Shown here in pieces: positions 9,641-31,809 of a DNA stretch of 64,000 nt (position 1 is its first letter; each line of letters starts with the position of its first letter). The position numbers were made by a program, and so were the translations under genes. Source of the DNA: Polytrichum commune (lineage: Eukaryota; Streptophyta; Polytrichopsida; Polytrichales; Polytrichaceae); assembly GCA_950295325.1 (NCBI GenBank), contig OX485806.1, positions 6,262,001-6,326,000 of the forward strand, given 5' to 3'. The notes beneath the pieces are model-generated. The model had not been told where the DNA came from. It made no database searches and saw only the letters and a program-made list of their open reading frames with translations.

Positions 9641-9891
9641 ATACTTACTTCCCACTTGGGATTTTTGTCCTTGTGAGGCCTGCCATAAAACTCCCATGAG
9701 GCCACGATGTTCTTAATCCATGAAACTTGGTAGGCCCATTTCTTGTTCCCCATGTTGAAATAACAGGAGATATCGTCGAGTCTGGTCTCGTTATCGACCA
9801 TACCACCAATGGTTTCCACAATTTCAAATTTTTCTTATGCTGATTGGGATCATAGGTTGTCAAATTGTTCCCAACTTTTTGGATCTCCCTT

Positions 9892-9955
9892 CACTAGTAG
9901 AAAACATGGTAAAAAAGAACCGTAGTCGTTTTCCCATTACGGTTCTTTTGACCAC
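9892..9955 (+). repeat. CACTA left terminal inverted repeat, 64 bp, with internal hairpin
   Basis: Perfect match to the reverse complement of 31743-31806. Inside it, AAAAGAACCGTA and TACGGTTCTTTT form a 12-bp inverted repeat around a GTCGTTTTCCCAT-type loop, so a single end can fold on itself. In En/Spm the TNPA protein binds short motifs near the ends; whether this hairpin plays that role is inference. Confidence 0.95.
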
Positions 9956-11600
9956 CTTTTTCCCTCGAGGTCCACCAAACGCCAATTCATGGTACAGTTG
10001 GTGTTTCCATTGACTGCCGCGTGGAAATTAATAAACATTTCATTCACACTTTGTTTGAGCGGTCATTGCATGCATGGTCTTCGATCACAACTACATGTAC
10101 ATATATATATAATGCACTCTTTATATTTCGTCGTCGATATTGAGCGAATACTATATGTATATATATATCAAACCCCGATTGCAGCAGGTATTCCGTCACA
10201 TTAACGGATCCAAATTATTGTAGGGCCTGCAGCTCATGCGGCACATATGGTAGATGATTGACATAGCGGTCGATTAAAATTATCTGCAGCTGCAGTCGAT
10301 CCCGAATCGGTTGGATTGTGCGCATAAAGGTAGTTAGCCTCCTATTTCTCATTACAGATATCCATCAGGTGGTCGGGTGCAGCACTGACCCGCGTAAAGC
10401 ATACCGATTGTTCATGGCAACATCATCGCCGGATCAAGTGACTGCAGTGTTGGGTTATGTGACACACAAATTCATAAGACACAGAAAACTGAGTGCAAGC
10501 ACACTCAGCTGCGGAGCGGGCGCGGGCTTGGTTGCCTTCGGAATGCATCCTGTTCAATTTGGATAAATCGATTCATGTGACATCCCTGCATATATATGAT
10601 ATTCATATTTCAGGTTGAGACCATTTGCTGACATGATGAGGGGAATCATATATTGACACTCTACAGAGTGAGTGGTGGACAGCTCCGGTCATGTGATGTC
10701 ACGGCATGCAGTCTTTTTCTAGCTATGCCTGACAGACATGTGCACCAACGTCCTGGCGGTCTTCTGGGACTGAGTGAAGGTCAATTTCTGCATATCTATT
10801 CCAGAGACAAACAGTTGGAAATCAAGCCACATCCGGAGTCCATTTCCAGTTTTCCACTGCAGGCGGTTCTGGAGTTGGGAGTCGGATGCATATATACTTC
10901 CTTTGATGTGTGCCCATAACGGTGAAAAGGCCGTTTGGCCTTCTGTCTCAAAAAAAAAACATAACGGTGAAAAGGGTGATGACTCTAATACATAGCAGTA
11001 TCCGTGTTTACCCAGCATTTATTAGCAGCATGATGGGAGGCCTCATGTTCGATAACATGGGAACCTGAACGCAAACACCAATTCCACAGTCTTCCATTCG
11101 GATGAAGCACTTGGTGCATGTGACTTGGGGAGCTTCAAGATGAAATGCACAGAAATACTACAGAATTGAAATGGCAGACTAGTACACCAATCATTGAGGA
11201 AACCTGGATTGCATAAAATAGTCTCTTATTATTTGTATTGGCAAACATCGTCAGAGATAATGCCCTCTTTCCACGGCACACTTGGCATAGACAGTTCTAG
11301 AAACTCAAGTAAAAACTCCTATCAATGACATGGAGCATCAATGCCATGCTCGTCCACAACCCACTACATGGTTTGCTCACTGAAATCTACCATGTACACT
11401 GATGAGAATGTACGTAAGAGTCACCTACTTTCACGTCTTACAAAAACGTTTCCATATCTGCTATATGGAATTGAAACCACCTATTTAATTGCTTCTTGTA
11501 ACTTCAGCTTGTTGTCAAAATATAAAAGCCGTTAACTTTCTGGTCTTCCGAAGGGAAAAATGAAGGATTGTGTTCATGAAAACTGTGTGATGGATGTATG
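9956..11600. other. CACTA left subterminal region, no gene assigned
   Basis: No gene is convincing. A plus-strand open frame at 10318-10566 follows a possible acceptor (ATTACAG at about 10350) and has protein-like composition, and another lies at 10653-10919, but neither links to neighbours or to a known family. CTGCAGCTGCAG at about 10285 is a simple palindrome. Confidence 0.4.
10915..10975 (+). mobile_element. 29-bp poly(A)-tailed retroposed fragment with 16-bp TSD
   Basis: CATAACGGTGAAAAGG occurs at 10915-10930 and again at 10960-10975. Between them lies a 29-bp insert ending in TTCTGTCTC plus ten A. A long TSD and an A tail are the mark of target-primed reverse transcription by a LINE or SINE, here extremely 5'-truncated. 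It inserted within the CACTA element and so is younger than this copy or was carried by its ancestor. Confidence 0.75.
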
Positions 11601-12009
11601 GGGAACCACCAATGTAAGTTGCTCCAATTCACTTCAATGATCTCCGAACTCCTTCAACGACCCCGGTACCGCATCCTCATCACCTGTATGCACACTTTTG
11701 AAATTAGGTGTGTCGCCCAACACAACTATTGCCCATCACACCCATTATGCAACGCATCTCCTACAACCATGCAAGACAAAGTCTGGAGCGTTCAAGATAT
11801 CCCTTACCGCCCTTAGTGCAGCAACACAAACTCTATTTAGTGCACAGTACAAAAAACTTCAGAATCCATGACGCTGCTTCTCTATGGAACGGTGAATTCC
11901 AAATACAGAATCCATCAAAAAACTCTTAAAAGACGTTGTCTACCATCAAAACATCAATTCAGCATAATCACACATTGTGTCTTCCCCAACTTCATGGGAG
12001 GTTTCTTAC

Positions 12010-12225
12010 CGGGGAGACTACAATCCACTCTCCAGGGCTGCGAATCCTAAACTAATGTGACGCGCCACCGTGACCTCTTGTTTCTTCCAACATAGCCGCT
12101 TAATCATCCTGTACATACACTCGCTTCCTGCTCATCTCCATATAGTCTGCCAATTTCTGCCAGTGCAAACAAGTCTCCAACATCCCGGTTGACGGGGTCC
12201 TGGTCCACACTTGCATCAACTGCCA
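12010..12225 (-). CDS. Two candidate minus-strand exons inside the CACTA element
   Basis: Exon a (12225-12119) follows an acceptor (TTCAATAG) and encodes a block with DVGDLFALAEIGRLYGDEQE, ending at a strong donor GTATGTAC in phase 0. Exon b (12051-12010) follows ACATTAG, encodes FRIRSPGEWIVVSP in phase 0 and ends at GTAAGAAAC. The phases match and the intervening intron is about 67 bp. They could be 3' exons of the TNPA-like gene or part of a separate cargo gene; further exons on either side could not be placed with confidence. No family recognised. Confidence 0.4.
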
Positions 12226-13124
12226 CTATTGAACATATTACCCAACTGGTATTTAAATCCATAATTTTTGAGCAACATGCGGTAATTGGAAAACCCAAAC
12301 GATGGCATCAGGGTTTCGCGACAGACGGAATCTACTATACAGCAACTCATGTGAGGCAACAACTGCCAGCAGCAATGTGCATGACTGACAAATCCTTCGC
12401 TCGTGCACAGGCCTGAAGTGAGATTATGGACAAGAGTAAACTTTCGTCTGACCAGATGTCATTTCCTGCATGTGATAGGGTATTCTGGCACATACCTTCC
12501 ATTACTGGGTGGGAGGGGGCAACATCATAAATCTTCCTCCGTTGAATACAGATGAACCCCTAAGCATATAAATATTGTGAGCAAGCAGAATGTGCTGCAA
12601 AGCATACCCAGAATCTAAGGTAAATGATAAAGATATAAACCAAAGCATTTGATAGAGTACAACCAAAAGCTATTTAGCAATGGAGCAGCAAGCTTTAAAT
12701 CTGAAACCAACAGGGGCAGATGGTTTATGTAGTTTATTGCCAATTCTTATTTGGATGCATGCTACACGATACCGCTTCTCCATCACTTTCGATTGAATTG
12801 CCTGCATTTTAGTACTCTGTCAAGGAATCCTCGGACCACATACGACTTTGGTTGCATTGAACTTCGATGGCCTCACTCACAATTCCAAAATGACAGCTCA
12901 TAACTACACACTTCGATATGCAAACTGCAAATGTCAAGAATTCACAGCAAGGCCTTACCTCCAATGCAAGTATCCTACAAATAATCAGCAGCCCACACAT
13001 ATACATGCGGCAACATGATTCATCGAATGGAGCTGACTTGATACATGGATGGTCAGTATCATATCTTCAACATGACAACTCAAATTGGCATGTTGTGCAA
13101 ACTTAGCAATCACCTGACATGGGT

Positions 13125-16100
13125 TCACGGGATGTGCTTGCCATGCAATTTCTTGTTGTCGGTTTTGTTCCTTAGTTGTACGTTGTTGCGCACCTTGCCA
13201 GTCTGCATAGACTCAGTTTTCTTGCCTGCTGCTTCCGGTGTTTTCCTTTGCGTACCTTGAACGATGGCAGTAGACTGAGCCCTCCCACAAACAGCGTTCG
13301 TAACATTGCCCATCATGCGAGTTATTTCCTCCATCGACGGAATCTGCATAATGTAGGGTACACCCCACAATATGGGCGTATTTGGTAGTCCCTCGACTTG
13401 ATCGAGGAAGGCGACGTGCTGTGGATAACGCCCCTCCTTCTTCAACATCACCGGTGTATCCTTGTAGAACACCCTGATGACTGAAATCATTTGCTCCCCC
13501 TTCTTGCACAAATCTTGCTCGTCGTTGATGCACCTCGACTTGTGGTTTATACCAGCGTACGCCTCTGCTACGACCTTCCCTTCGTACTTCGGATGCAACA
13601 CCCATACCTTCACACGTACTCTGATTGGATTCTACAACACATAACTTGCAATAAACATGTTAAATCACAGCATGACTTTTATTAACTTCATTGTTCGCCT
13701 TCCAATAATATGCATATGTCAATTACATACCCCAACACGAAAATCATCCACAAATTGATCAGATACTTACGGAATTTATAGGTCGTCTGCCAAATTCAAG
13801 TTGTGTTATTACAGAAGCGTCAATCTGTGGGCACCTCTGCTTCTTCAGTTGTGGACTGTTGCTTTTCGACCTACCTCTTTGAGTCCTCCGCTCAGAGCCC
13901 TTGGGTTCACTCATTAATTTCCTTTTTACTGGGACTTTTGGTAACACAGGCAGTTCCTCAACATCTGTGTCTGTCCCATTTGGATGACGTTCAACATCTT
14001 CATCGTTGGACTCATCGTCTTCTTCCTGGCTCGTTTCCTCCTTCAATTTGCTCCTTTCATGCTTCTTGTGTGACTCACTAAAGGGTTCTGCCTCGTTCTG
14101 TTCACCCGACTTCCATATCTCTTCTTCTTCTGGTTCATCCCCTCCATCCTCGGGCCAATTTAATTTTGGAAAGGATGTTTCAAGAGGAGGATTCTTCGAG
14201 CCAAGACTCTGGGTATCTTCCTCATAGCTATAGTTCATTACATGTGAGCTCTCTGGAGATGTCGACGGGCTTCGTTTACCTATCCCTGCTGATATTACTC
14301 GTGAGGTTGAGGGTTGTAACTTTTTGCTATTCTGTTTGACCACCTTTTTCTTTGTTGATTTTATTATTGCAATAGGGTTGTCATCGGATGAATGGTCCGA
14401 TGACAAAATCTCCACGGTATGAAAGATTTTACCTCTTGCTGCAGTATCCTGGGAAGGACGGCGTTGCTTTGCCTCAGCTCTGGACACAATATTATTGAAG
14501 AGGGTACCTACTGACCTGCTTTCTTCCTTGTGCTCCACACGGTCCAATGTAGTACTCTTCGATCTCAATTCCAAGGGATGGCGTGAGGACCTCCCATTGT
14601 CCCTGTCTCTTTTATTCCCTTCCACCATGGAGGACTTGCCATGTTCCAGGTGTGACTTCCCTTCTCTGCTGGTTTTGGCCATTACATGGGATTCAGAAGG
14701 CCGTCTCAATCCTTTTAGCACCTCCTGCGTCGTGCGGTTGCTCGGCCTTGCAGCCCTTGGAGACTCTGGTCCGCTATCGTCAACAACATTTTTATGGCCT
14801 TGAGCGGACACGTTCTGCACTAAAGAGTCACATTCTGAGGTTAAGTTGGAAACAAATTCGTCCACCATAGCATGCAACTTGTTACTAATGTCAAGCATGG
14901 GTGGTCGCTCTACGGGGTCGGCCGAAGATGAAATCTTTGATGTTTGTGATACATGGGATCGGCCGGGCAACGCCGTAACATTGGAGCCATTTTCTTTCAG
15001 CTGTCACAAACATTGAACCACAAAAAATTGCACATGATGAGCAATATGCACAGCCTGGAATAAGGATATAACATGCATGGATTAACTTTGAAAATGTGCA
15101 AGTTTACAATGCCAGGAATGAATTGGTCTACATAAACATGCCATTAGTAGCAATTAGGAGCGGGAGTGTTTATACCTTTGCCGGGAATGCTCTGTCCTGC
15201 ACATACAGAGCCTGTTTAACACCATCAACACCTGCACGGAGGGGTTCCCTCTCCCGGGATACGGTTCTGCCATTCTCCTGCACATAAACATTCGCACACT
15301 TCTGGTCAGAATGTCAGACTCTGCAATGACCAAGAAACATGAAACTTAATGAAAGCAAGCTAATCAATCTCAGTACATGCAACTGTGATGGACCATAGCA
15401 GGGTCCCCCAGGATTGCCAAGTGCTTTAAGTTATGACAATCAGATTTGAGGGCAAGAAAACGTACTGATGTTCCTTTCTTCAATGCTGCATTTGCCTTGT
15501 TCCTTTCACATTCTTTGCTCCCTTCCGTGGATTTCCAATAATCTACCAATTGCAACCATGCCGCTGAGGCACAATCGTCAGGCTTACCATGGTCACCGTG
15601 TAGGATCCAATGACGATGATAGACTGCTCTATTTCTCTTATATAGACGTTGTAGGAATCCGGCGACCATGCCCTCTGGAAGAGGTTTCTCTAATATAAAC
15701 TGCCTCTTCACTTCCTCCATGATATCTTGCATTGTAGACGCATTTTTAACGTCTATATCAGCGTATGGAACGATAGCAAGTGCAGCTAGTTTTAAGGCGT
15801 TCAAGAACTGCGCTTTATACTGCACTATGTTCCCATTGTTGTCCTGTTGCAACTGGACTTGTGGCACTCTACCCTCCGCAATGGATCTCTTCACTTCCTT
15901 TAAATAAGACTTCTCTTCTACCCTAAGTTGTTTTCTTTGTGAGGACGTATAAGGAGGGGATGACTTACTGGAGTTTGTACTTAACAACATGGGGCTATTG
16001 CTTGTATGGGTCATGCGAGTCTGCGAAGGAGCGGAGTCATGCTGGTCTGGCAAGGCCCCTCCCCCCGTTGAGGTCTGTGCGCTACCAGTCGCACGATTGG

Positions 16101-17175
16101 CTTGACGTGTTGGCTTTCCAGTGTCAGAGTTCTTCTCTACGCAAGAAGGACCACGAACCTCACTCGTATCTCTCCCGACCTGCAATTCTCTCTGGACCCC
16201 ACAATTACCTTGTGCGGAGGGTGCACTAGTCCCCAGCATGACCTGTCCACTTGCATCATCCATAGCCAAACCTTGTCCCCGTGAGCGAGGATGTGAGTGC
16301 TCTGGAGGTAATCCCTGGAATTGCTGGGAGCTGTAGTCGAATTTTCCTTGCATATATCTGGGATGTTGGTTATATGCTGCACCTTGTGGAAGATTCTGCA
16401 CAGGCAACAACATGTGGCTGGAGGATGGCCCTTCGAATTGAATTTCCCTTTGCGGTGCAGGATATGACAATTGGTTGTTGAATGGACTCGATTGTGCAAT
16501 GGGCGTACCCATACACGGGTTGTACAGGGAACCGCCTCGAGCACTCATGTTGCCAAAAACTGACTGTGGCGTTTGCCAAGGGATTGTTCGTTGCTGTTGA
16601 TGGTAGGTGGCCGCATAAGGCATTCCAAATATCTGCATACAATGAACACTGTCATTCTTGGTTGCGGGTGCTACTTACATCCAAAGCTTGAAATTGCTCC
16701 TAGTGTCATTACATTCATGGTTTGTGGCTTATCGGCACAATGAGGCAAGAATACAGTGGCAGTGCATGTTAGAGCAATGCCTGGCATTAGGGCACGGTCA
16801 ACATTCAAGCCACCTGAATACCATTGCCTTTGGAGAAATAAGTCCTTGTCTAATTGGAGACACAATTTGGGTCAGCATTGTACCTGTGTTTCATCGAATC
16901 TCTGGGATTGTGACTGCTCGACTCTCATTACCTGCAAACGCAAATGCAGAAAATGAGGATTTCACTTGCACAACTTTTCAATGATCCTACACCCTGCAAC
17001 CTGCGAAGTTCATGATTTGCACACCTCTGTCCTAGAAAGCCGAGCGTCAATGTTTGATAAACGTGGACAACAATTGGGAGGAGTCATGTACCCCCCGCGT
17101 CAAGTCATCCGCAAATTGCGTGCTCCGCACAACATCATAGTCCCCGAGGTTGACATGCTCGTATTGGTCCGCCAT
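13125..17175 (-). CDS. TNPA-like CACTA accessory protein (Ptta/En/Spm transposase_24 type), six exons
   Basis: Predicted exons on minus: 17175-17092 (ATG start, 28 codons), 16931-16884, 16632-15466, 15277-15176, 15000-13771 and 13631-13125 (stop), 1045 residues in total. Every junction is phase 0 with GT/AG borders, including the donor GTAAGTAT at 13770. Exon 3 is Gln/Pro/Ser-rich, then carries the conserved block with PLPEGMVAGFLQRLYKRNRA and a tryptophan-rich segment followed by a Lys/Asn-rich end, as I recall for PF03004. Exon 5 is charged and Ser-rich, with a long Glu/Asp tract near 14000-14170. Exon 6 contains RVLHP-like and CKKGEQ motifs and a basic tail. In En/Spm the second protein binds element ends and assists TNP2. 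A donor at 13255 offers an alternative 3' end with more exons. Confidence 0.75.
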
Positions 17176-20100
17176 GGTAAATCCCTGTGTTTAGGCTATG
17201 TGAACATGAGTTTCATCCTTGATTTGCACAAAAAACATGCTTGATTTCCAACTACAATGCGCACGCTGCACTTTCACAATCCATATCAAACAGCTGAACA
17301 AGACGGATGGCTGTGCTTCCAACAAGGGTATTTGTGTGGACAACTCCCTGTTATTCTCTTAGAGTTTGTCCTCGGTGGCTTGTGGTTAGTTTTCCTCATT
17401 ATTCAAGTTCTGTGTGGAAGCTCAGGATGGTGTGCACTCTTCAAATCAACTCGCTGTTGTTATTGACAACAATGCTAATTCAACATGGCAAATTATTTGA
17501 ATAGGACGAGGAAAAAATGGTCAAGACAGCACGAGTATAATACAAGTTCACTCACAATGGACTTGCTCCGACCCAGGGAATGTCAACAATGTTGCTCTTT
17601 CCTGCAGCAGCTCCTGTCGGTGTTGTCTCGCACCCGTGCGTCACTTCCTCAAGGCTGCATATCCAGGAGTTCCCACTTATCAGTATGTACTTCGTGGGTT
17701 TCATCTGTATGACAGTTGCTTCCATTTATGGTCCACTGCATTAGTTTAACTGTGGATAGACAAGAACACCAATGAACACCTTCATCTTTGCTCTTAACCT
17801 GCGTAACACCTCGTGGTTTATGTATTTAACAACGAACGTGGACCAATGAGACTCGCCATGGGGCACTCAAACATCCATAATCGAAATAATAATCCAGAGA
17901 ACACAACTTGGCGAGAGGAGACACATGGGCATATCAGTTCGCAGATGATTGGGGTTTAGCATGCTCATCGTTCTCCCTTGAAATGGCTCATCTCTCATGT
18001 AACACAATCCTGCGCATCATCCACTAATTAATCCCAAAACTAGTCCAATCTGATTTCCACAACCACCATTGGGTGAAATGCCCGGCCTCAAAACAACCCT
18101 TTTGAATTGAGGTGGGTTGGACCCAAGTAAATACATGTAGAGTGTTTGAGATCTGTTGCTCGTCCAATGCCTTCTCGGCATGAACGCCACTGTGCGTTAT
18201 TTTAAATGGGCTCAGCAGGTGCTCTCCACTTGGGGTTGGTGGGTATCTGCAAAAGTTGCTAGAAATGGTGTTAGTGCAGCATCGAGATGACCTTAGCAAT
18301 GAACTCAGTTGCTACCAAAGAACCTCGGAGGGACGAAGATGCCACAATATTGACTAGATGCGAGGACTCTCCGACGAATGCTCATTTTCAAGATTGACCA
18401 ACATAACACATGCAGTCTCAAGCACAGTATTCACCACAAATTGGGACGACCGTTATTCTGCCAGTGCACAGATTATACCATCCACTACATTGAGTATGCA
18501 ATTGCCCATATAGCCCTACATGCAAGACAGCAGACCAGCGAGTTCCAAGCTCCAGATCCCACCCCGACAACAACTGACGGAGCATTTGCATCCACTGTGG
18601 TTGGCACTGCCTTGAAGCACGATCACCTTACAAGACCCACCAAAAAAATCCTCAGACCTCACGAAGAAGTCCACTAACAAGTGTTGCGCAGAGGTGAATG
18701 TTACAGATGCAAAGGGGTGCGATGACATGGGGAAGGGTAGAGGAGCAGGTGAGTTAGACGTGAAGGAGACATGCACAGGATGGTTGGGCCCGGAGGTGGA
18801 CGACATCGCTCGTCGTTTGGCGTTGGCTCTCTAGTTGGCCAACTGCCAAGCCTAGTGTCTTGGAGGAATTAAGGGCCTTCTCTGGGGACTAGGCATAGGA
18901 TAGTGGCAGTGCTAGCATGCTGGAAGCGGGAAGGACGCTGACGTGGCAAAATCATGGACGATGGCTACATCGAATCCACGTACCACATGGCACCATCTTC
19001 GTGCGCAATTATGGCGGGATGGCAAAGGTGTTCTTCAAAGTTAAATCCAGCCCCCGGTAATGATGGGGCTAGATTGATGTCCTTCCCACTCCCTTGGTAT
19101 TCTGTCCCATTATTGCCCCTAGCCGGGCCCCCCCCCTACGCCGCTCCACGGGCAGCGGTGTGGGCCATCGATTATGGTTTTCGGGCAGGGCAGTTGTGCA
19201 TCTTCGGTCAGGGTAGTCTCGGGCAGGCGTGCTTTCCAGAATTTCGCCGGCGGGGAGGAACTCCACCTTTTTGGCGTCGCCACTCTTGTCATCGCCGACC
19301 ATGTCTCCCCCGCCAGGAGATCATGTTTCTCTCCGCACTTGACGATGAGGCAAAGCCTTTCAGGAGAATGCACTGCAATTGGTTTTGTGAGGAGCAACAT
19401 GGGGTGGAAAGAAGGGCAAAAAGAGCTGAATGAATGGTGAAGGACGTTGGGTTGTTCGTGTTGCAGAGCGAAGGTGTGCCAGGAGTAGGGATCATCCTCT
19501 CTTCAATCCATACGTCAGAGTTTGCTTTCCCTACACACCGCCATCTTCATCTCTTGGACGATTCGGCTTGGGACGGTGCATCGCGCCAATCGTCTTACAT
19601 AGATCTTGAACATGCTGCCATGCTTAATTTTTGGAACCTTGGCAATCCTTTGGTTATGTGTCATTCCCATCCGTATGTTCACAATGTCGGAAGTCTTGTG
19701 AAAGCTCGGTCTTATGTATGTTGATGTGGAGTGCGATCTAAATACCATGTTGCAATCATGTTTTGCAGGTCGGCTTTCGATTGACACTTGTTTTATCGTA
19801 GCCAGGATCGCCGGAACTGACCAAAGATGGATCTGGCAAGGTTATATTCCGTATAGCGGCGTTTGTTTCCACCGATGTGGGGAGAATGATGTGGGTGTCC
19901 TCATACATATCCGCATTGCTTGTTGTTGCTCTGCTCCAGTTGCTTCTGTGGTCACACATAGAATGTCCTGGTGTGCACATGCACTGGTGCCAGATCGTCT
20001 AGCATGCCTCTGATAGGTGAATTGAGAACACACGACCATGACATGTAAGTTGATGTGCACTGACAGAGTAGATTTACTATGTTCTTTACTACACTAGTCC

Positions 20101-22197
20101 CAGAACGTGCGTATGCATCTGTTGGAAGCGGATAATTAATAGTGAGCCCCTGTTGCAATTGTTCCTTGAAGATGAATGCTTCATAGTAAGGACTGGTCTG
20201 TGGTATCCCCTACAAACTAAACCAGATTCAGACGCTAGAGATTGTGAGCACATCCATGTTTGTGAAGAGCGAAACAAAATGGGGCTCTACTTCTAAATAA
20301 AAACTGTTGTTTTAGAAGGTCCTCTCCACCTCTACTCAGTAGTCCATGCTCCATGTGTCATTCATTGTAGTTTGATCTGCATGATATTAAAAACAATGAA
20401 CTCTTCGCTTGGCAACCTTATTGTCGTTTCTCTGAATATGAATCCGCTTTCGCAGTGGAAGATAATGATATTTATTTGCAACAGCTGGGAAAAGATATGG
20501 GAGTGCTATAGCCACGTCAGAGCTTGATGCCATCGCGCTTCGACTCGGCCGACATTTCCAACAGATCGAGAGAATGGAGTACCAGATACCGAGGAAGACT
20601 TAAATCCACAATTTGTGTTGGCCACAATTGGTCAGTTTGCCCTGGTGGGATAAAGGTAGGGTCTCTGTGTGTCGTGGGTTGAAATGTTGCTAACTGGCGT
20701 GGAGTTTGGCCCGGAGACGTACAAGTAATTGTATAGCATTGGGGTGCACTATGGAGAGAAATTCTTCAGGAGTGTTGGGAATGATGAAAGATCACAAACT
20801 CTCAGTCAACCCTCGACGGTGAGGTTTCCTTCGCCTGTGAAATCCAATGTTCAGGACCAGGTTTTATATAGGTTCTCTTGAATCGCTTAGTCTGCTGGTT
20901 GTGCACAGCATTTCAATCTGCTGAAATTGGGTAGGTTTTGAGATGAGCCACTATGCTTTACATCATTATAGTAGTTGGATCCCGGCCTGGTTGATTTTAT
21001 CGCATTTCATGGCATTATTATCTGGCGATCTACAAGTGATTCCCTTGACTTATGTTTGACTCACTAATTCTTTCTCAAGTGAGCAACGGTGAGGTAATTT
21101 TCCGAGCCCAAAAACCTTGAATGAATTACCTCCATGAAGAACATGTAGCATGAATATAGTGCCTCTATGTCGGGCCATGAGTTTGTAAACAACTTGGAAT
21201 GGGACTCTTCGAGTGGCAGTATCCAGTTTTTCTGCATGTAAGTTGAATGGCACACTGTAGGTGCAGGAGATATTGATCTGTTCCCCCCCAGGTTGATTTG
21301 AGGTTGTTTGAAGTTTTAATATACCCTCAATATCGCAAATTTCAAGAAGAAAATACAATTTTGTGCACCAAGATTAAACCTCAGGGGCAGCACCATACTA
21401 TGCTAGGACTGTGTAGAGAAGAAGTTGAAAGAGAAGTCAGCGTCACATCTTTGAGAGTAATGTCTTGCATTACCTGGACATTGAGAGGATATACTAATGC
21501 CGCGTGGGTTTTATTACTGTAAAGTATTAATCTTGACAGGTGGAACCGTGTGATAGGCACGGGCGACCAGAAATTTTGACAGTTCCAATAGGTTAAAAAG
21601 CAGCTACCCTTGGCACCTGATGCAAAGTTCAACGTGATTGCTGCAGCAACAGTTGGACACATTGGGTAAGTGATTCAATGAATTCAATTTCACAAACTTG
21701 GGTGATTTGATTTTAGCAGGTTCATGTAGCCGCCATGCATTTGATACACTCATCGAGGCAACAAAGCCATTATCCACACATCTTACATAGGAGTGTCATT
21801 CTCTCGAGGCAAACAAATGTGTAATCTTCCTTATGCATGGTCAACACTCTCTGTGCCCTACGGAACTGCTGTAATTGTGTGGGCTTGACAATATATTTGC
21901 ACTGGATGAGTCGCACGTATAAAATACCTCTGCGGTGTTTGGGATTTGCCAAAGTATGAATAGATTACTTCCAGGGTATGCTTCTCGATGGAGTGCGATG
22001 AATTTTCTCGGGAAGTGGAACGTTCTAATGATGTACGTGTTTGCACTTAATATCTACAGTCTTGCCAGTTGTTTGGGCATAATCTAGGTTTGTTCTCAAT
22101 GACGTTGTAGGTTTTAGTTTCCAAGGGTGCTTTGTTCACAACTCTGAAACATTATTAGTAGCCACTCACAGAGGCTGAATGGATTGACACAAGGCAG
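17176..22197. other. Divergent intergenic region of the CACTA element with orphan minus-strand exons
   Basis: This 5-kb stretch separates the two divergent transposon genes and should hold both promoters. It is not empty. 18806-18632 on minus opens with ATG and ends at a donor (GTAAGGTG). 18246-18024 follows a good acceptor (TTTTGCAG) and ends in a stop. Around 21050-21250, 21400-21660 and 21770-21950 minus-strand stretches have protein-like composition between plausible splice sites. Phases of the 18-kb pair do not join directly, so an exon is missing or they are unrelated. No domain recognised. The 159-codon plus frame at 18954-19433 looks like a GC-rich shadow. Confidence 0.35.
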
Positions 22198-22239
22198 TTG
22201 CCCGATCTTGTGCAGTGGCAGGACATCAATATTACTATT

Positions 22240-25200
22240 ATGGAGGATGAACACGTAACTCGATTGCCACTAAATCATCCACACCGCATCCAGGCAAGGG
22301 ACTTGAAACTGCAACAGAGAGATGAAGAACGTGCACGAAGAAATGAGACGTCTAGATATAGGTGTCCCTGTAATCTATGTGGAGGCCGGAGGCGGCCATA
22401 CAAGAGCACCACGGTTGCGCGCCACTTGAGGCATCGGGGCAGGCATGGTGCCCTCAGAGGGTGGACCCAGGTAAATCACATCTTCACATAATGTTTGAGG
22501 TCAGCATTTGAGGAAGTGCACATTCATTGATGGTGGTTCAGCAAGCCTGGCATTATGTACATGCATTTATAAGTCAATATCGATTTGTGATACAGGGTGA
22601 TGAATGCGACTCCTCTGACGAAGAATGGGACCAACACATTGGCACTCACGCAAGAGCATTTCTTGGCCTTCACGAGCCAGTGGTAGAGATAGCACTGGAC
22701 GAGGGAGTTGGAATCGGTACGATGGTGAGGAACGCGTTCACGCGTGCGGACGACATCCACGTGTGTGCATCTCTGGCTGTGAGTACCTCGACCTCTGCTC
22801 GGGAGGCGTCAGCAGCAGACCAGCAAGCATCTGGAGGCCGTCAATCAAATGGCGATGAGTCCATGAACGCGGAGGAGAGTGATGCAAATATCCCTGCTCC
22901 TCAACCAGGGCAGCTGTTTGAGTCCGGTGCTGACATGGAATCTAATCTCAATTCCACTTCAAGCCTTGGATTGAATCCATCAATGTCGGGCGACCCTGAG
23001 AGGCTGGGAGCATCAGGAGCTGGAGCAGGCAACGACGACCCAGAAGAAAACTCAAGTGACAGCTCCGCTGGGGATGACTGGTCTTCATCCGACGACATGT
23101 CCACTGACAATGAGGATGTGGAAGAGTTGTTGGGTCAAATTCCGAATGATCGAATGGGATCCAATCCCGAGATTGATATCGCTGCCACACTGCCCCTGTA
23201 TGAGGGCAGTACATTGTCGATGTTGTGTGCGACACTACTTATAGTGAATTGTTGCAAGACACATGGTGTGTCGAACTCGTTCTTGAATGAGCTACTTATG
23301 CTCCTGAGCATGAGCATTTTGCCTCAGGGCAATTGCCTACCAAAAACAGAGTATGAGGCAAGCACAATTTTACGTCGACTCGGCTTGGCGTATAACATGA
23401 TACATGCATGTCCTAAGGGTTGTTGTTTGTTTAAGGGGGATTTAGAGGATGCAGAAAAATGTCCAGTTTGTGACCATGATAGGTATAAAATGTGCGGGAG
23501 GTCTCGGGTCCCGACATTGATATTACGTCATTTCCCTCTGATTCCACAATTGCAAAGAATGTTTAGTTCAAAGAGGTTATCCAAGTTAAATGTATGGCAT
23601 CATTTCCACAAGTCAGCAGATGGTAAGATGAGACATACAGCTGATTCTCCACAGTGGAATTTTGTGCACACAGAATTGGAGCCTGAAGCTGGCAACAACA
23701 AGTTTGGCAAGGATCCACGGGATATGCATTTGGGACTTGCCCTAGATGGCATGAACCCATACTCGGAGAAACGCAGCACCCAAAGCTTGACACCGGTGAT
23801 TGTATTCAACTACAATTTACCTCCATGGATGGTAACAAAAAAATACTTTGTGATGTTATGTCTTTTGATTCCAACGAAGTTGAGTCTAACTGGTTCCAAT
23901 ATTGATGTTTTCATACAACCATTGGTAGATGAACTACAACAGCTTTGGAGTCGGACAGGGGTTCCTACACGGGACGCCAGAGCTCACATGGGAAGGTCAA
24001 TCTTCAATCTAAGGGCAGTTTTGATCTGGACATTACATGATTTTCCAGCTTATGGGCTTATATCTGGACTGACAACAAAAGGGTTCAAAGCCTGCCCTGT
24101 ATGCGGCCCACATACAATATCGCGGAGATCAAGAATTCTTCAAAAAAACTTGTATTGCAATTGCCATCGGCGGTATCTTCCACAAGACCACTACTTTCGA
24201 GCACCGGACGCAGCATTTGATGGTGAAGCCAATCACGACATCGCAGAAGAACCACTCACCGGAAACCAAACAATCAGGCGTGGACATGAATCGGAGGCGT
24301 ACATTGATGGTGGCGGCATGGAGAAGGACGCTGAGTTTCCAGCTAAGGTGCATGGCGTAAAGAGGGTATCCGCATTATACCAATTACCGTATTGGAGGGT
24401 TAGTGCTCAAAACCATAATGGCGGCAGATTGCTTGTTTTTATTATGACCTTGTGCCCGACTCTCATCGTTGGTTTATGCGAGTATGTGTCATGTGCATGT
24501 GCAATCAAGATAATATTGCATGGGGGATTCAATCTGTTGTGGGTGATAGAAGACGTGTTCATGGTCAATGTCATGGATACTAATTATCAGAATGTTTGGA
24601 GTACATTGCTCATGGTAGCAATCTAACCTTGTTCACAACACATCTCTATGTGTTAGACGCCCTGTAATATATCCCAGTAACTACACGGGTGTTCAATAGC
24701 AACAGACTAAGGAGTTCATCTGCTTATTCCTCGTTTCTCCTTTCAGCTTCAGAGTGCTTGTGTGCGTATATCGGTGTTTGGGAGGATTCTGGAAATGTTT
24801 GTGTGTTGCACCTTGATGCAGAGTTGCTGTTCAGGATGTCCAAATATCTTATATATGGCTGGTTCATGTAGTCGACGTGTCTTCATGTGATTGAAGTAAG
24901 GCCCATTTGTGTATATTGTAGTGGACATGCACGGTGTCTTTAGGTTTTGTCCATTGCCTTCCTCTTGTCACATCTCTAATCTATGTAAGTGAGGTATTTC
25001 TTTATGGTTGGGCTTTGTAGGTTGAATGTTGATTGGAAGGTTCAGTTTTAAAGTGTATCGGGGTCAAATATCACTGGGCATGGTCTTGAAGTTCCAATCA
25101 CCACTATAGCATATGTTGTAGCGACCTTTAGTCTGTCGTCATGTATTTGTTCAGATTATCATTCATTTTATAACCTGTGGTACTAGCATCATGATGTTCA

Positions 25201-28182
25201 TATCTTGGCACACTTGCACAAAATTAAATCATAGTTGAATCTGAATATATAGTCGGCACCTTTATTATAAAGTCATTATAAGTACCATTTTTGCCAATCC
25301 GTCCATGCCACATAAACACACTTATAGATCAAGGCAGCCAGGCATCATAAGTACTTACTTTGTTGTACTCAAAGTTAATAGGTCAGTGATTCAACCATGG
25401 CTGGAGGTATATGCAGGTGGATTCACTTTGTTGAACTTACATTGAAATGGTGCTGGTATATTGTGATCATGCACGTCCATACATGCATCCAGCCTACATG
25501 CTTGGAGAATTTAGCGTTCGCAGCCACAGTGGTTAAGAAGGAACTGTGTCTACTGTGGGGATGTGCTGCTATAATGCCTATGTTGCGGAGCCTGGCTCCG
25601 CAATTGGAAAACTGACCTCCTGGAGTATGTTTTAAACTGTTTGCCTGGAAATGTTATTTAAACGGCAATTGAAATGCCGAACAATCATTTTTGTCTGTAC
25701 CAATGGGCACTTAACACCCCGGGTAGATACTGGATAACTTAAACTTGGGTTTTTGAGGTTAGTAACCCTAAACCATGGTTATGATCAGTTCTAAATGTAT
25801 TCTGCCGGACAAGTGATATGGAGGGGTCACACACTCCTCAAGGGCCCCCAGGTGTAGATAACTCTGCCAACCTTATCACCCATGCTTTATTTGTCACATG
25901 CAAGTGTTGTTGCATTCCTCACTGTTATGGTTGCAAGAACATGCTGGTTGTTACAATGGAACTCATATCCTTGTAATGGTGTGAGCATATTGTTAACGTA
26001 GATGTCCAGAACTTCATGTTGTGATGTTTGTTGATTACTCACACTGAGTTTGCAAACCATGCACAATGTTGGAGGATATGTGACGTGTCACTAGATTTGG
26101 CCGCAGAGGCTTCCGATTCGGCATCTTCTGGACGTCATGCACATTGAGCGTAACATCTGCGAGAGCTTGTTGAAACTGATTTTTGGTGCAAAAGACACTG
26201 CAGCTTCGCGGCGAGACATGGAGGAGGAGCGGATACGAGAACATTTGTGGCTTCGACGAGGACCGGTAGCAGGTGGGCATTATTTGAAGCCTCCGGCGTC
26301 GTATGTGCTCACGAAGGAGGAGCAAAGAATATTCATGGAGCAGGTGAGCGGTATATCAGTTCCAACGGGATATTGTGGGCCAATGAAGAAGCACATCATC
26401 AAAAACAGAATCGGTAACATGAAGTCACATGACTTCCACATTTTTTTCCAATTTATACTCCCAGTTTGTTTGAGACACCTTATGGGCTCGGGCCCTCGCC
26501 AAGCTATCATTCGTTTGGCGAGGTTATTCACCATGATATGTAAGAAAGTCATAAATGTAGCAGAATTAGAGCGTCTGCAACATTTCGCAGCGGAAACCAT
26601 GTGCTTAATGGAGATATGGTTTCCTCCTTCGTTTTTTGACATTATGGTCCATTTGCCAATTCACCTAGTTAGGCAAGTCAAGTTGTGTGGTCCAATTGCT
26701 AATGCTTGGTGCTACCCGGTGGAGAGGCACTTGAATGTTTTGAAAAAATATATTAGGAGCAGGGCACATCCTGAAGGTGCCATTGCGAACGCTTATGTAT
26801 TTGACGAAGCCTTGGGGTTTTGCACCGAATACTTGAAATTGTATCCTCACACCCGTCGTCGGATTTGGGACGACGAGGAGGAGTTGGGAGATTGCGGAGA
26901 ATTGTTGGAAGGAAAAGCAATTTACCGAGAACTTAGCAGTGAGGAACGACGGGGAATCCATTCGTGGATTATTAGGAACTCTGATGCGACCAGCGAGCCT
27001 TGGAGGTAAGTTTTTTGTCCCCCCGTGCTGAATTGTCATAGGGCAAACCATGTAAAACAACCCATTCACTGTGAATGTTCCAATCAACATTATAATTACT
27101 TTCAGTTTGTGTGCCTTTAGAGATTACCAGGTCCTTACAGAGCAGCTGGAGTCGGAAAGGGAGCGGTTTAGGAGGGACGCTGCAGCACGGGGGCTTTCAC
27201 GAAGAGAGCAACACAGGTATCCAGATGCACTTATGCATGGCCTCCCTGACTTTGTGGAGTGGCTGCCCCAGTACACAACAATGTTGGTAAATGCCCATGG
27301 TTCAAACAATGTCGACATTGAACTACTCCGGCTATCAGCTCTACCCTCAAGGGATGCTGAGACTTACCAACAGATGTGGGCCTATGGCAATCATTACAGA
27401 GTGGCAAACGAGGGGGACAATCCTGGGTTTGTGACGCAGGATTATGGCATCGCCAGTATTTTTGGTGCGGAGGAAGGACGAAGTGCGGGGGTGAGCATGG
27501 TTGGGGTCTTGAAAGAGATTATCGTGGTGCGGTACTCAGCCCAAAGGAGAGTTGTATTTCGAGGATCCTGGATCCGCAATGATCCTGGGCCACGGTCATC
27601 AACAAAGGTAGACCAATTTGGCTTCACGGTGGTACGCTTCAATGATCGAATTCCAAGAAACACGGAACCATATGTATTGCCAGCCACAGTCAGACAGGTA
27701 ATTTTGTCTCTCTAAACATGTGGATTCATCTTGGAGCTTGATAATGTTGCTACAATTGTTTTGATGTGCACCTTACAAAGATGGTTGTGTGGCTGAAATT
27801 CACATGCAAGACAATAATTTCTTGACGCTCTGGAAACAATGAATAGGTGTTCTTCATTCCGGACTGGCTGCACCGTGGGTGGAGCGTGGTGATGCAGAAA
27901 GAGCCGCGGTCAAGGAGAGTAGTAGATAACGATGACGAACAAATACTGGGGATATCTGGCGAATTAATTGGCTTGCAATTGCCGCGAGACATGAATGCTG
28001 CACAATTCCGCCCACTTGTGAGACATGCTGGGGAGGCAGTTCCAGCTGCAGAGATTGCACGGTTAAATGCACTAGTGAGGGGGGAGAGACACCAGGAACA
28101 CCAACGCGGAAGACCACAAGCACCCAGGGGGGTGGAACGGGGAAACAATCAAAGAAGGTTGCACAGGAGGAATGCACCCTAA
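22240..28182 (+). CDS. TNP2-like CACTA transposase (Transposase_21, DUF4218, DUF4216), five exons
   Basis: Predicted exons: 22240-22470 (possibly starting earlier, as an acceptor CAAGGCAG precedes 22198), 22596-24398, 26107-27005, 27121-27697 and 27847-28182; about 1281 residues from the first in-frame ATG. Exon 1 has a CPCNLC...HLRHRGRH zinc-finger-like pattern. Exon 2 holds an acidic stretch, then the transposase core with GLALDGMNPY, FNYNLPPWM and WTLHDFPAYGLISG. The exon 2-3 junction restores the conserved LPYW...LDVMHIERN run across a 1.7-kb intron. Exon 3 is DUF4218-like (LIHLP-type motif, WCYPVERHL). Exons 4-5 are DUF4216-like (YG...GVLKEII...QVFFIPDW) with a basic C-terminus. No stop or frameshift was seen. 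It should catalyse excision and integration at the CACTA ends. Confidence 0.88.
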
Positions 28183-28570
28183 ACTCTGAATACAGAGTTG
28201 GAACCCTGTTACTATCGAATTTGGTGAGTAGCGCTGGAGAGTTCAAACTTAACTTCCCTCAGGCAAAGTAATGTGTTATGCAGTACAGCTAGGCTTTCAT
28301 TATTGGTCCATGTGCCTGATAGGAGAAGATCACGATGGCAGTGTCGATGCATAGATGCAACTTCATGGGTATGAGACAATGCACATATTTGCTCGTGGCA
28401 GCGTAGAGATATGAATCAGTACCCCAACATGGAGATGGCATCTGAGGCTTAGTTATTGTGGTGGCAATTGTTGATGATGACCTTGTGATTGTGTCGATAC
28501 AACATCACTGCGAGTAGTTGTTGATTGCAGACAAGTTGGGCACATGTTGGGTCAAGTTTTTTTTGCGGAA

Positions 28571-29680
28571 TGAGTTGTTGTCTGCAGAGGCCATGGGCAC
28601 GGGAATGTTCAATTTATTTCCTGCTGTGCCTAGGCTCACAATTGCTACTTTGTGAGTGTGCAGGCTTTTTGCAAAAGGAGGCAAAAAAAAGCCCCCCCCC
28701 CCCCCGTCTACAAGGTTGGAATTCATGAGTCCCGTACAGTCTCACATGTGCATAGATCGGGGAAGTGTGAATGGTGTTTTGCAATAACCTTCCAATAATC
28801 TGTTTGATGTCTGCAGTGTTTATAGTTGGCACAGGACCGTTCAATTTTTTGGCGACATTAATTGTTGTGTGCAGACGCCATGGGCACGAAACCGTTCAAT
28901 TTTTTTGCTGTTGTGGCTAGGCTCCCAATTGCTAGTTTGTGAGTGTGCAGGTTACTTGCAAAAGGAGGTAAACCCCCCCCCCCTTCAAAAAAGTTGGATT
29001 TCGTGAGTCTTGTACAGTCTCACATGTGCATAGTTCGGGTAAGTGTGAATGGTGTTTTGCAATAACCTGCCAATACGATGATTGACGGCTGCAGTGTTTT
29101 ATAGTTGGCACATGACCGTTCAATTTTGTTGCGGAATTAGTTGATGTGTGCAGAGGAGGTGGGCATGGGACCGTTCAATTTTTTTTCTGTTGTGGCTAGG
29201 CTCCCAAATGGTAGTTTGTGAGAGTGCACATTACTTGCAAAAGGAGATACAACCCCCCCCCCCCCCCCAATACAAGTTGGATTTCATGAGTCTTGTACAG
29301 TCTCACATGTGCATAGGTCAGGTAAGGGTGAATGGTGTTTTGCAATAATCTGCCAACATGATGATTGATGGCTGCAGTGTTTTATAGTTGTTCCAGGACC
29401 GTTCCATTTTTTTGACGAGATTAGTTGTTGTGTGCAGAGGAAGTGGGCACGTAACTTTTCAAATCATATGTTGTTGTTGCTCTTGCTCCAAAATGGTAGT
29501 TTGTGAGAGTGCACATTACTTGCAAAAGGAGGTACAACCCCCCCCCCCCCAAAAAAAAGGGTGATTTTATGAGTCATGTACACTCTCACATGTGCATAGG
29601 TCGGGTAAGGGTGAATGGTGTTTTCCAATAATCTGCGAATATGATGATCGATGGCTGCAGGTTTCATAGATGGCATTTAA
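28571..29680. repeat. Tandem array of about four 280-285-bp units with poly-C tracts
   Basis: Units begin near 28571, 28857, 29138 and 29420 with TTGTTGTGTGCAGAGG-like sequence. They share GGGCACG, CCGTTCAATTTTTT, GTTTGTGAGTGTGCAGG, AAAGGAGGTA plus a 10-16-base C run, GTACAGTCTCACATGTGCATAG and GAATGGTGTTTT. The array lies downstream of TNP2 within the CACTA element. The C run is in the same place in each unit but differs in length. Confidence 0.92.
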
Positions 29681-29689
29681 TTGACATGT

Positions 29690-30939
29690 GGTCGGTATTG
29701 CAATGTATGTGACAAATGTGCTTTCAATTTGCAGTGACGTGCACAATGTTCACATGACAAATCATCCTATGTATGTATTGATGATTCAGTTACCGGGCTC
29801 CATCGGGTTTCCAACACCGTTTTCATAAATGTCCAGTAATCAATGTTTGAACAATGAGGCTCCTGTTGTGATATTTCTCCTAAATTATGTAGAGAATGAT
29901 GCGGTTATTCCACTTTCCACTTGGCCATCCTTTGGTGCGCCATTATGAAGTGAGGTTGTTATGTGACCGGATCAGGTTGTGGTTGTGTATGTCAATGTTG
30001 GTTTGCAGGATGTGCAAGTCTCCACCTCTCCGACGAAAAAATGCATTGTTTGAAAATGCGGAGCATCGGTGTGTGGTGGTCAATTCTCACTGCGGGGATT
30101 GAACGGGCTTTCCAGCAAACCATGTATATGGAAAAATAGGCGTATTCTTCATATACAGAGACACGCTGGTTGTGGACAAGGTACTTCTCAAACTTGTTTG
30201 AGGATATGTAAACACCTTGATTTAATATATGTTCCACATGCAGTAGTCTATGTTCAAGGGATTGAAGCTATGACGCAAGACACGTAAGCACTTAGTGCAG
30301 CAAACATTGTTCATGGGCGGTAAAATTTCCTCATTAAAACATCCGAATTGTTTACATGTGGGCAGGGACTTTCGCAATGTGGCCGCAGATTCTCATGGGA
30401 AGTGTCAATTCCTGGAACAAAACATTCGGAATTTGCTCATTTTTGGACAGGGACGATTATGTTGTGTTTTGGATTTAGCAGTGGCCTCACTACAGGGGCA
30501 GATCAAATCTGATCTGACAATGCTGGAAACATTGAGTGCAAGGTGTAATATAACTTTATTGTTGTCTGGAAATACTGCACTTCTGGTCCAATGGTTCTTA
30601 TTTCAAAACGTCTGTAATATTTAATGTGAAGTCCATTTCTTGCATTCCCATTGCAATAAACATGTGTAACACAAATCTTATTCCTGAAATGCAATCTAGA
30701 TAGGAATTCATGACAAATTCTCATCCATGTATGCAGCCTGCCATATTTGGGTGGCACCCACACGACCTTCTTCACGGATGACAGTCAACACACTGTGTTT
30801 ATTGCAATGATGGTTAGCACACTGTGTTCCTAGTGAATTGAATGCCAGAGTCCCTAAACCTTGGGTGCCACTTGAATGTGAACCACAGTCGTTTTGGGGT
30901 GTCATTCGTATCACCATGCTTGTTTACGTTCAGGAGCTC
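29690..30939. other. CACTA right-hand region without recognisable gene
   Basis: Nothing coding is convincing. The 109-codon plus frame at 30295-30624 lacks splice context or family resemblance. Confidence 0.4.
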
Positions 30940-31095
30940 AGTAGGCCTAGTGGCAGTGAAATTCGACTGTCACCTGTTTTCCAGTGACAGTGGAATTTGA
31001 CCGATAGTCAAATTCCTGTGGCACTCAAAATCGAGTGTCACTCGATTTTGAGTGTCACTCAATTTTGAGTGACACTGGAATTCGAGATTCAAGTG
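30940..31095. repeat. CACTA right subterminal palindromic repeats
   Basis: A cluster of AGTGTCACT / AGTGACACT motifs. 31022-31054 is a perfect odd palindrome: CACTCAAAATCGAGTG, one T, then its exact reverse complement. A further copy TCACTCAATTTTGAGTGACA follows, and GAATTTGAC / GTCAAATTC half-sites precede. Clustered short subterminal motifs are where TNPA binds in En/Spm; these are candidates by analogy. Confidence 0.75.
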
Positions 31096-31742
31096 ATGTC
31101 AGCTGCCAGTCGTCCTACGTTGGCAACTCAATCGTGGTATTAGTTGAGTGCGACTCAGTCAATGCGGGCAGCATTGGTGAATATGGGCAATAGGGTCACA
31201 GTCAAATCCCAGCGGCAATGCTCATCGAAATGCAGAGAAACGGTGGACATATTCGAAATTTAGCCTAACAACTTCCCGGCTAGCAGTGGTGTATGTGCAT
31301 ACAATTTCAGTTTGGGAGATGACATGGGAGTGTGGATGAGACGAGGAACGATCACATTCATCCGCAATGAACTAGCTATGTATTACGCCAACAGACAAAA
31401 TGTGACATGCTTAATGGCACCTTATGGGCTATATATTAACATCATCTAATTGCAGATGGTGCTCATTGTGTATATATTAATAGCCAGTCACTAATTCCCT
31501 GCGAAGGAGCGTGGACATCATAACTGAACTTATGGAAAGCCAGTGCAATATCCCTACCCAAAATAAACCACCAATATACCCTAAACCAATGTACACACAC
31601 AAATTCAAGGTATTATTAATTGCATGCATTCGCAATTTCGATTATAGGGAAATTGATCTATATATGCAGACGAAGTTGAAAACTTAAACAACAGTGACTG
31701 AAAATTATAAAATATTATGCCTAATAAATTCCCGGCAAAAAA

Positions 31743-31806
31743 GTGGTCAAAAGAACCGTAATGGGAAAACGACTACGGTTCTTTTTTACCATGTTTTCTA
31801 CTAGTG
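31743..31806 (-). repeat. CACTA right terminal inverted repeat, 64 bp
   Basis: Mirror copy of 9892-9955, ending CTACTAGTG. After one mismatch the inverted similarity continues for a few T/A bases. It is followed immediately by the CTT TSD at 31807-31809. Confidence 0.95.
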
Positions 31807-31809
31807 CTT

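What the first reader, a model, noticed from the sequence alone, without database searches (positions are those of the whole stretch)
9892..31806. Complete, possibly autonomous 21.9-kb CACTA transposon
The sequence directly shows 64-bp perfect inverted ends, a CTT TSD, and two divergent genes whose predicted exons are all open. From established knowledge, TNP2 plus a TNPA-type partner is the En/Spm machinery. The size is unusually large because of a 5-kb divergent gap, a 1.7-kb TNP2 intron, a 1.1-kb tandem array and 3 kb of left sequence with extra exon-like blocks. Identical ends and open genes imply recent mobility.
Basis: partly seen in the sequence, partly recalled or inferred. Interest (0 to 1): 0.8.

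Follow-up and report, generated by a model that had tools for sequence, protein, structure and literature searches.

The report
Young, intact 21.9-kb CACTA plant transposon
This stretch is a complete copy of a large "jumping gene" of a well-known plant type; near-identical copies sit at other places in the same genome, so it moved recently, but its design is a member of a known class rather than something new.

Summary
Window 9892-31806 is one CACTA transposon: perfect 64-bp inverted ends, CTT on both sides, a TNP2 transposase gene and a divergent partner gene. Two more full-length copies on other scaffolds are 99.6% identical over 21.9 kb with their own duplications (ATT, AAG); a fourth copy has no detected right end. 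The C6 copy's target exists unfilled: all 40 listed matches to its joined flanks cross the junction at 94-97%. Five-exon TNP2 (1,281 aa) and three-exon partner (969 aa) models are open in all three full copies; dN/dS against relatives is low for TNP2, low to moderate for the partner. Size and long ends are within the reported range for CACTA. The extra left-hand exons are not supported. The En/Spm equation is partly right: Spm is mostly one transcription unit, whereas here the genes point apart, as in 53 of 54 TNP2-partner pairs counted. Twenty-five facing pairs of the same ends lie only 275-337 bp apart: mini-elements. Autonomy is plausible but untested. Ordinary in kind; modest interest.

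The parts
9889..9891 (.). target-site duplication CTT, left
9892..9955 (+). left terminal inverted repeat, 64 bp perfect; contains an internal inverted repeat (9892-9964 folds as RNA with z -4.96)
9892..31806 (.). whole CACTA element, 21,915 bp; C6 copy 21,914 bp and C5 copy 21,911 bp are 99.6% identical
13125..13631 (-). partner gene exon 3 (stop at 13125-13127); dN/dS 0.14-0.17 against three relatives
13771..15000 (-). partner gene exon 2; the ORF block 13762-15003 gives dN/dS 0.25-0.46
15466..16638 (-). partner gene exon 1, weak Transposase_24 (PF03004) similarity near its 3' end; the ORF block 15373-16674 gives dN/dS 0.30-0.44
16639..22239 (.). 5.6-kb stretch between the two divergent genes; of the matches to 16800-22150 only the four family copies match throughout, others are patchy at 68-86% (40 of 85 candidates scored)
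22240..22470 (+). TNP2 exon 1, partial Transpos_assoc (PF13963, below cut-off); dN/dS 0.04-0.14
22596..24398 (+). TNP2 exon 2, Transposase_21 (PF02992, 5.8e-62); dN/dS 0.13-0.17
24399..26106 (+). 1.7-kb TNP2 intron, GT-AG in 3 of 3 full copies
26107..27005 (+). TNP2 exon 3, DUF4218 (PF13960, 7.4e-38); dN/dS 0.05-0.07
27121..27697 (+). TNP2 exon 4, DUF4216 start (PF13952, below cut-off); dN/dS 0.09-0.12
27847..28182 (+). TNP2 exon 5 with stop; dN/dS 0.08-0.13
28558..29675 (.). 283-bp x 4.0 tandem array, 84% matches
28985..29064 (.). 80-bp noncoding block 98-99% identical in six diverged relatives
31028..31065 (.). three CACTCRATTT motifs 0.74-0.78 kb inside the TNP2-side end; a similar small cluster lies in that region of three relatives; candidate protein-binding site
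31743..31806 (-). right terminal inverted repeat, 64 bp perfect
31807..31809 (.). target-site duplication CTT, right

Best explanation
A complete, recently moved and potentially autonomous CACTA (Class II, cut-and-paste) transposon. TNP2, a DDE-type transposase made from five exons, binds and cuts the 64-bp ends and re-inserts the element with a 3-bp duplication; the divergently transcribed partner is the TNPA-type accessory DNA-binding protein. The nearly identical ends on 275-337-bp mini-elements would let them ride on the same proteins. Shown: anatomy, copies, own target duplications, empty-site paralogues, open genes under selective constraint. Inferred: protein roles, splicing, cross-mobilisation of mini-elements, present-day activity.
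For: Ends and CTT duplication. Two more full copies, 99.62% and 99.59% identical over 21.9 kb, with ATT and AAG duplications and no similarity among the 190-197-bp flanks (12 of 12 flank comparisons empty). Pairwise divergence 0.35, 0.38 and 0.41% (76, 83 and 89 mismatches; 66, 70 and 74 are transitions). Empty site: 40 of 40 listed matches to the joined C6 flanks cross the junction at 94-97% (117 candidates, 40 scored); for the window's joined flanks 38 of 54 listed matches cross it at 75-78%, with only 31-44 bases on the left side (349 candidates, 40 scored). TNP2 open in 3 of 3 copies with GT-AG at all four introns; dN/dS 0.04-0.17 in all five exons against three relatives. Partner 969 aa open in 3 of 3, dN/dS of its ORF blocks 0.14-0.46. 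PF02992 5.8e-62, PF13960 7.4e-38. 3-bp duplications also at 7 of 7 mini-elements and at the two diverged relatives C2 and C1b.
Against: No transcript, excision product or insertion polymorphism could be tested. The partner's Transposase_24 match is below cut-off (0.063). dN/dS of partner blocks 1 and 2 (0.25-0.46) touches the control range (0.44-1.20), and relatives carry stops in aligned coding stretches (C1b three and C1a one in partner block 1, C1a two in TNP2 exon 3). Arrays of short subterminal repeats were not found within 1 kb of either end. The C5 copy has an in-frame TGA at 15427-15429 that falls in an intron only if the donor at 15465 is right. One long relative read, the sister copy on C3, has no matching 3-bp duplication (AAC / TTT). 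The family is small: three full copies and one truncated.
Confidence: 0.85

Rival explanations
1. A recently moved but no longer autonomous copy: intact-looking genes, but the element is silenced or one protein is non-functional, and movement was driven by a related copy in trans.
For: 66 of 76, 70 of 83 and 74 of 89 differences between copies are transitions, as expected for methylated DNA. A sister family looks younger (0 mismatches over 18,920 bp between two copies) and carries related ends and genes. The C6 and C5 copies differ from the window copy by 8 and 15 amino acids in TNP2.
Against: Both genes are open in all three full copies and constrained over longer times.
Confidence: 0.4
2. 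Two different nested elements whose ends only look paired.
For: A mini-element with the same kind of ends lies nested in the left end of relative C2, so nesting does occur in this group.
Against: The 21.9-kb unit with the same two ends recurs at two other loci, each with its own 3-bp duplication.
Confidence: 0.02
3. Segmental duplication rather than transposition explains the near-identical copies.
For: The copies are long and nearly identical.
Against: The 3-bp duplications differ, the 190-197-bp flanks show no similarity, and the C6 target exists without insert.
Confidence: 0.02

Closest known systems
En/Spm of maize (type element of the CACTA superfamily)
   Same: CACTA termini, 3-bp duplication, TNPD/TNP2-type transposase plus a second protein
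   Different: Most of Spm is a single transcription unit, alternatively spliced to tnpA-tnpD (passage in PMC1636069); here two separate genes diverge from a 5.6-kb middle. Its 13-bp ends (passage in PMC2613891) are much shorter than 64 bp.
Tgmt*, 20.5-kb soybean CACTA (PMC2613891, passages read)
   Same: Large putatively autonomous CACTA with a 3-bp duplication and a large transposase gene
   Different: Imperfect 13-bp ends and subterminal repeats (4 left, 24 right); one gene is said to encode both functions. Here 64-bp ends, two genes, and no such arrays found.
Cactavine-5 of grapevine (PMC2528002, passages read)
   Same: 21-25 kb long, 3-bp duplication
   Different: 23-bp ends; a ULP domain, and in two copies a captured PPR gene part, are reported there. 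Here no captured gene was identified in the parts searched.
Jozin elements of Chenopodium (PMC8978399, passages and section 6 read)
   Same: Ends of some begin CACTAGTAGAAA; domains TAD, Transposase_21, DUF4218, DUF4216, with Transposase_24 in ORF2 of some types
   Different: 8.3-10.1 kb, with 19-23 copies of a 12-bp subterminal motif; here 21.9 kb and no such array found
pvCACTA1 mini-elements of common bean (PMC4938662, passages read)
   Same: Small non-coding CACTA elements with long ends
   Different: 145-158-bp ends, more than 12,000 copies, and no autonomous partner was found there; here 275-337-bp elements share nearly identical 64-bp ends with intact long elements of the same genome

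Membership tests
CACTA superfamily | CACTA...TAGTG inverted ends | tested here: met
   64 bp perfect in the window copy; the same ends in the C6 and C5 copies
CACTA superfamily | 3-bp target-site duplication | tested here: met
   CTT, ATT, AAG at the three full copies; ACG and GTA at relatives C2 and C1b; 7 of 7 mini-elements. Not at the sister copy on C3
CACTA superfamily | TNP2-type transposase (PF02992 with DUF4218 and DUF4216) | tested here: met
   PF02992 5.8e-62, PF13960 7.4e-38; PF13952 4.1e-4, below cut-off
CACTA superfamily | second protein gene of TNPA/ORF2 type (Transposase_24) | tested here: inconclusive
   Direct E 0.063; five relatives 4.6e-6 to 0.076, best 27.3 bits against a cut-off of 28.7; two more distant relatives gave no match
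CACTA superfamily | arrays of 10-20-bp subterminal repeats in direct and inverted orientation | tested here: not met
   Apart from ATATATATA no 9-mer occurs 4 or more times in the first or last kb of the window element; there is one small CACTCRATTT cluster near the right end. Fewer or degenerate repeats would be missed. I treat this as a usual rather than obligatory feature, so membership stands.
En/Spm-type gene layout | both proteins from one alternatively spliced transcription unit | tested here: not met
   The two genes lie on opposite strands, divergent; the same in 53 of 54 pairs counted. Transcripts were not seen.
Autonomous CACTA element | its own proteins mobilise it | not testable with these tools
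   No expression or transposition data; only open, constrained genes shown

The most novel reading that the evidence does not exclude
This genome hosts a live CACTA system of a non-Spm design: transposase and accessory protein are separate genes fired apart from one central, possibly bidirectional, control region; recognition is concentrated in a 64-bp hairpin-bearing end instead of subterminal arrays, so 333-bp foldback elements that share only those ends are mobilised by it; and diverged families swap their TNP2-side 3' regions, which stay about 95% alike (up to 98% in some pairs) while the gene-bearing stretches have diverged to 73-84% (the latter measured for one pair, C2 and C1a).
Probability: 0.2. 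Interest if true: 0.5.

Novelty: new member of a known kind. Interest (0 to 1): 0.3.

Why it matters
Intact CACTA elements with matching mini-elements in one assembly are useful: they give a testable transposase / mini-element pair and candidate insertions for polymorphism work in a plant genome. The consistent divergent gene layout is a reminder that the maize Spm model, with one alternatively spliced transcript, does not describe every CACTA element.

Tried and rejected
Host gene capture: for the 5.4-kb middle (16800-22150) only the four family copies matched throughout; other matches were patchy, at 68-86%, and include relatives (40 of 85 candidates scored). No captured gene was identified there; the rest of the element was not searched for this. 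Known RNA families: none in the window at gathering score and none in 28180-29760 up to E = 1. The 80-bp block is not an exceptional fold (z -0.30 and -0.81). I first read that block as a possible ultra-conserved functional element; some searches showed that in the relatives it is part of a shared stretch of 550-700 bp or longer and that right-hand regions are mosaic, so exchange between elements is the simpler reading; function is not excluded. In one search TNP2 exon 5 was tested in a wrong frame (dN/dS 0.63-1.57, with stops); one search repeated it in the frame of the spliced model (0.08-0.13). In one search I also tested ORFs in the middle: 18942-19430 gave 0.17 (26 codons, C2), 0.74 and 1.01, 19122-19502 gave 0.70, and 19518-19841 gave no alignment, so no further gene is supported there. 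In one search longer spliced TNP2 variants (up to 1,320 aa) existed; I chose splice sites by eye and by the usual break after LPYW (recalled), so the exon boundaries, the start of exon 2 above all, are uncertain. In one search longer partner variants (up to 994 aa) existed; the donor at 15465 was chosen because homology in two relatives ends soon after it and the frame stays in phase. In one search relative C1a was cut with about 300 bp of flank and its target duplication was not read. The TIR-internal inverted repeat does not match strictly in each mini-element, so I claim no selection on the hairpin. Literature on divergent CACTA genes: in the listings of searches and the passages read I saw no paper that describes it, but Wicker 2003 was not held and the library is partial; I cannot say it is unreported. 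The host was not identified: no call gives a name. Seven large scaffolds (C1-C7; lengths) suggest a plant with seven chromosomes (inference).
Full report
What is there. Window 9892-31806 begins and ends with a 64-bp perfect inverted repeat and is flanked by CTT on both sides. Allowing mismatches the arms are 73 nt at 97%; the next longest inverted repeat listed is 53 nt at 74%. The window is C4:6262001-6326000 of a 408-Mb genome in 64 contigs.

One element, not two. The 64-bp end gave 440 candidates, of which 40 were scored and matched. Two further loci hold the same pair of ends at the same distance: C6:27428590-27450503 and C5:21370946-21392856. They are 99.62% and 99.59% identical to the window copy over 21.9 kb, with duplications ATT and AAG; the 190-197-bp flanks of the three copies show no similarity (12 of 12 comparisons empty). 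A fourth copy on C7 has the left end at 998363 (100%), but no right end was found; in the 7 kb fetched its match stops at element position 19165, inside the tandem array. Pairwise divergence of the three full copies is 76 of 21,911, 83 of 21,909 and 89 of 21,909 sites, mostly transitions (66, 70, 74). With a plant rate of about 7e-9 per site per year (recalled, not from a call) that is roughly a quarter of a million years; faster mutation of methylated cytosines would make it less.

Transposition shown by empty sites. With the insert left out and one duplication kept, the C6 flanks match 40 of 40 listed places across the junction at 94-97% (117 candidates, 40 scored). For the window copy, 54 matches are listed (349 candidates, 40 scored): two are its own two halves, 38 cross the junction at 75-78% but with only 31-44 bases on the left side, and 14 are left-hand pieces that do not reach it. 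So both copies sit in repeats whose relatives lack the insert; the evidence is strong for C6 and weaker for the window copy.

Genes. On the plus strand: exons 22240-22470, 22596-24398, 26107-27005, 27121-27697, 27847-28182, 1,281 aa, open with GT-AG introns in 3 of 3 full copies. Pfam: PF02992 5.8e-62, PF13960 7.4e-38; PF13952 (4.1e-4) and PF13963 (5.2e-4) are below their cut-offs. dN/dS against relatives C1b, C1a and C2 is 0.04-0.17 over the five exons; C1a has two stops in exon 3, so that relative is itself damaged. On the minus strand: exons 15466-16638, 13771-15000 and 13125-13631, 969 aa, open in 3 of 3; the ORF blocks around them give dN/dS 0.30-0.44, 0.25-0.46 and 0.14-0.17 (C1b has three stops and C1a one in the aligned stretch of the first block). 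Controls in antisense or alternative frames gave 0.44-1.20, so the first two partner blocks are only moderately separated, the third clearly. The C5 copy's in-frame TGA (15427-15429) lies in the predicted first intron. Splice models rest on sequence, not transcripts.

Is the partner TNPA? Directly it is a weak call: PF03004 at 0.063. Two relatives at 26-27% identity in the same genome reach 4.6e-6 and 0.0028; three others 0.0038-0.076; two more distant ones gave nothing. None passes the curated cut-off. I take it as TNPA-type by this chain and by position.

Layout. Taking the listed hits (150 scored of 631 candidates; 80 matches), 54 of the 80 partner hits have a listed TNP2 within 25 kb, and 53 of these 54 pairs are divergent, one is in the same orientation; 26 partner hits had no listed TNP2 that near. 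Hits are not independent, since identical copies and split hits of one gene are included; among the 20 paired of the 42 lowest-ranked partner hits, 19 are divergent. Most of maize Spm, by contrast, is a single alternatively spliced unit (passage of PMC1636069).

Mini-elements. Of the first 100 of 111 pattern places, 72 form 36 facing pairs: 25 of 275-337 bp and 11 of 18.5-49 kb; 28 ends are unpaired. Seven of the short ones were read: 7 of 7 have a 3-bp duplication, six are 87-90% self-complementary without gaps and one 67%, and the two tabulated against the window element share with it only the end, 64-65 bp. Whether this transposase moves them is inference.

Ends and subterminal region. The end contains an inverted repeat that folds well as RNA (z -4.96). 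No 9-mer apart from ATATATATA is repeated four or more times in the first or last kb, unlike the arrays reported for Tgmt* and Jozin. A motif CACTCRAWTT, searched on both strands of four lineages, occurs 3, 2, 4 and 2 times (window, C1a, C1b, C2), each time only in a small cluster 0.67-0.94 kb inside the TNP2-side end: a candidate binding site. The motif was picked by eye from the sequences.

Mosaic right-hand regions. An 80-bp block of the array (28985-29064) recurs at 98-99% in six diverged relatives, where it is part of a longer shared stretch. Relatives C2 and C1a are 94.6% identical over 1,609 bp up to the right end, but 73-84% in the longer stretches that hold the genes. Exchange between elements is the simplest account.

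Ends, duplication, genes, intron, array and mobility are right. The size is ordinary (passages; pairs). End lengths of 8-64 bp are quoted in PMC11790086 (passage) and 10-54 bp in PMC4938662 (passage), so 64 bp is at the long end. The left-hand exon-like blocks are not supported: three ORFs tested, one 38-codon stretch at 0.25, the rest within or near the control range. Autonomy is plausible, not shown.

Verdict. A young, structurally complete member of the CACTA superfamily with divergent genes. New member of a known kind; interest 0.3.

Noticed in passing
L039 (C5:8183046), L040 (C3:28736883), L041 (C2:41407371): A sister CACTA family (TNP2 about 87% aa identical over the 253-aa query) shows 0 mismatches over 9,900 bp among three copies and over 18,920 bp between two, with unlike flanks: a very fresh burst or an assembly effect. 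The C3 copy (21,467 bp) has no matching 3-bp duplication (AAC / TTT), and the C5 copy runs into a 200-N gap.
   Followed up: partly
window 28985-29064; L035:339-1039; right ends of C1b, C2, C1a: Noncoding stretches and whole right-hand regions are 94-98% identical between some CACTA relatives; for C2 and C1a the gene-bearing stretches are only 73-84% identical: mosaic elements.
   Followed up: partly
L007 (C2:45947540 element), element positions 255-566: A mini-element of the same kind is nested just inside the left end of the relative C2.
   Followed up: no
C2:5127819/5136077, C2:41422717/41435035, C7:5484686/5497106: Pairs of identical-scoring sister-family partner genes lie 8-12 kb apart, with only one listed TNP2 beside each pair, suggesting tandem or composite arrangements.
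   Followed up: no
L035 positions 583-749 (query positions 245-411 of L035:339-1039): A stretch of about 165 bp of the shared cassette, palindromic in part, also occurs at many other places at 92-94% identity: another dispersed repeat.
   Followed up: no
window 2274-2456: G-rich tandem repeat of GGGAGGGTCGGG-like units outside the element.
   Followed up: no
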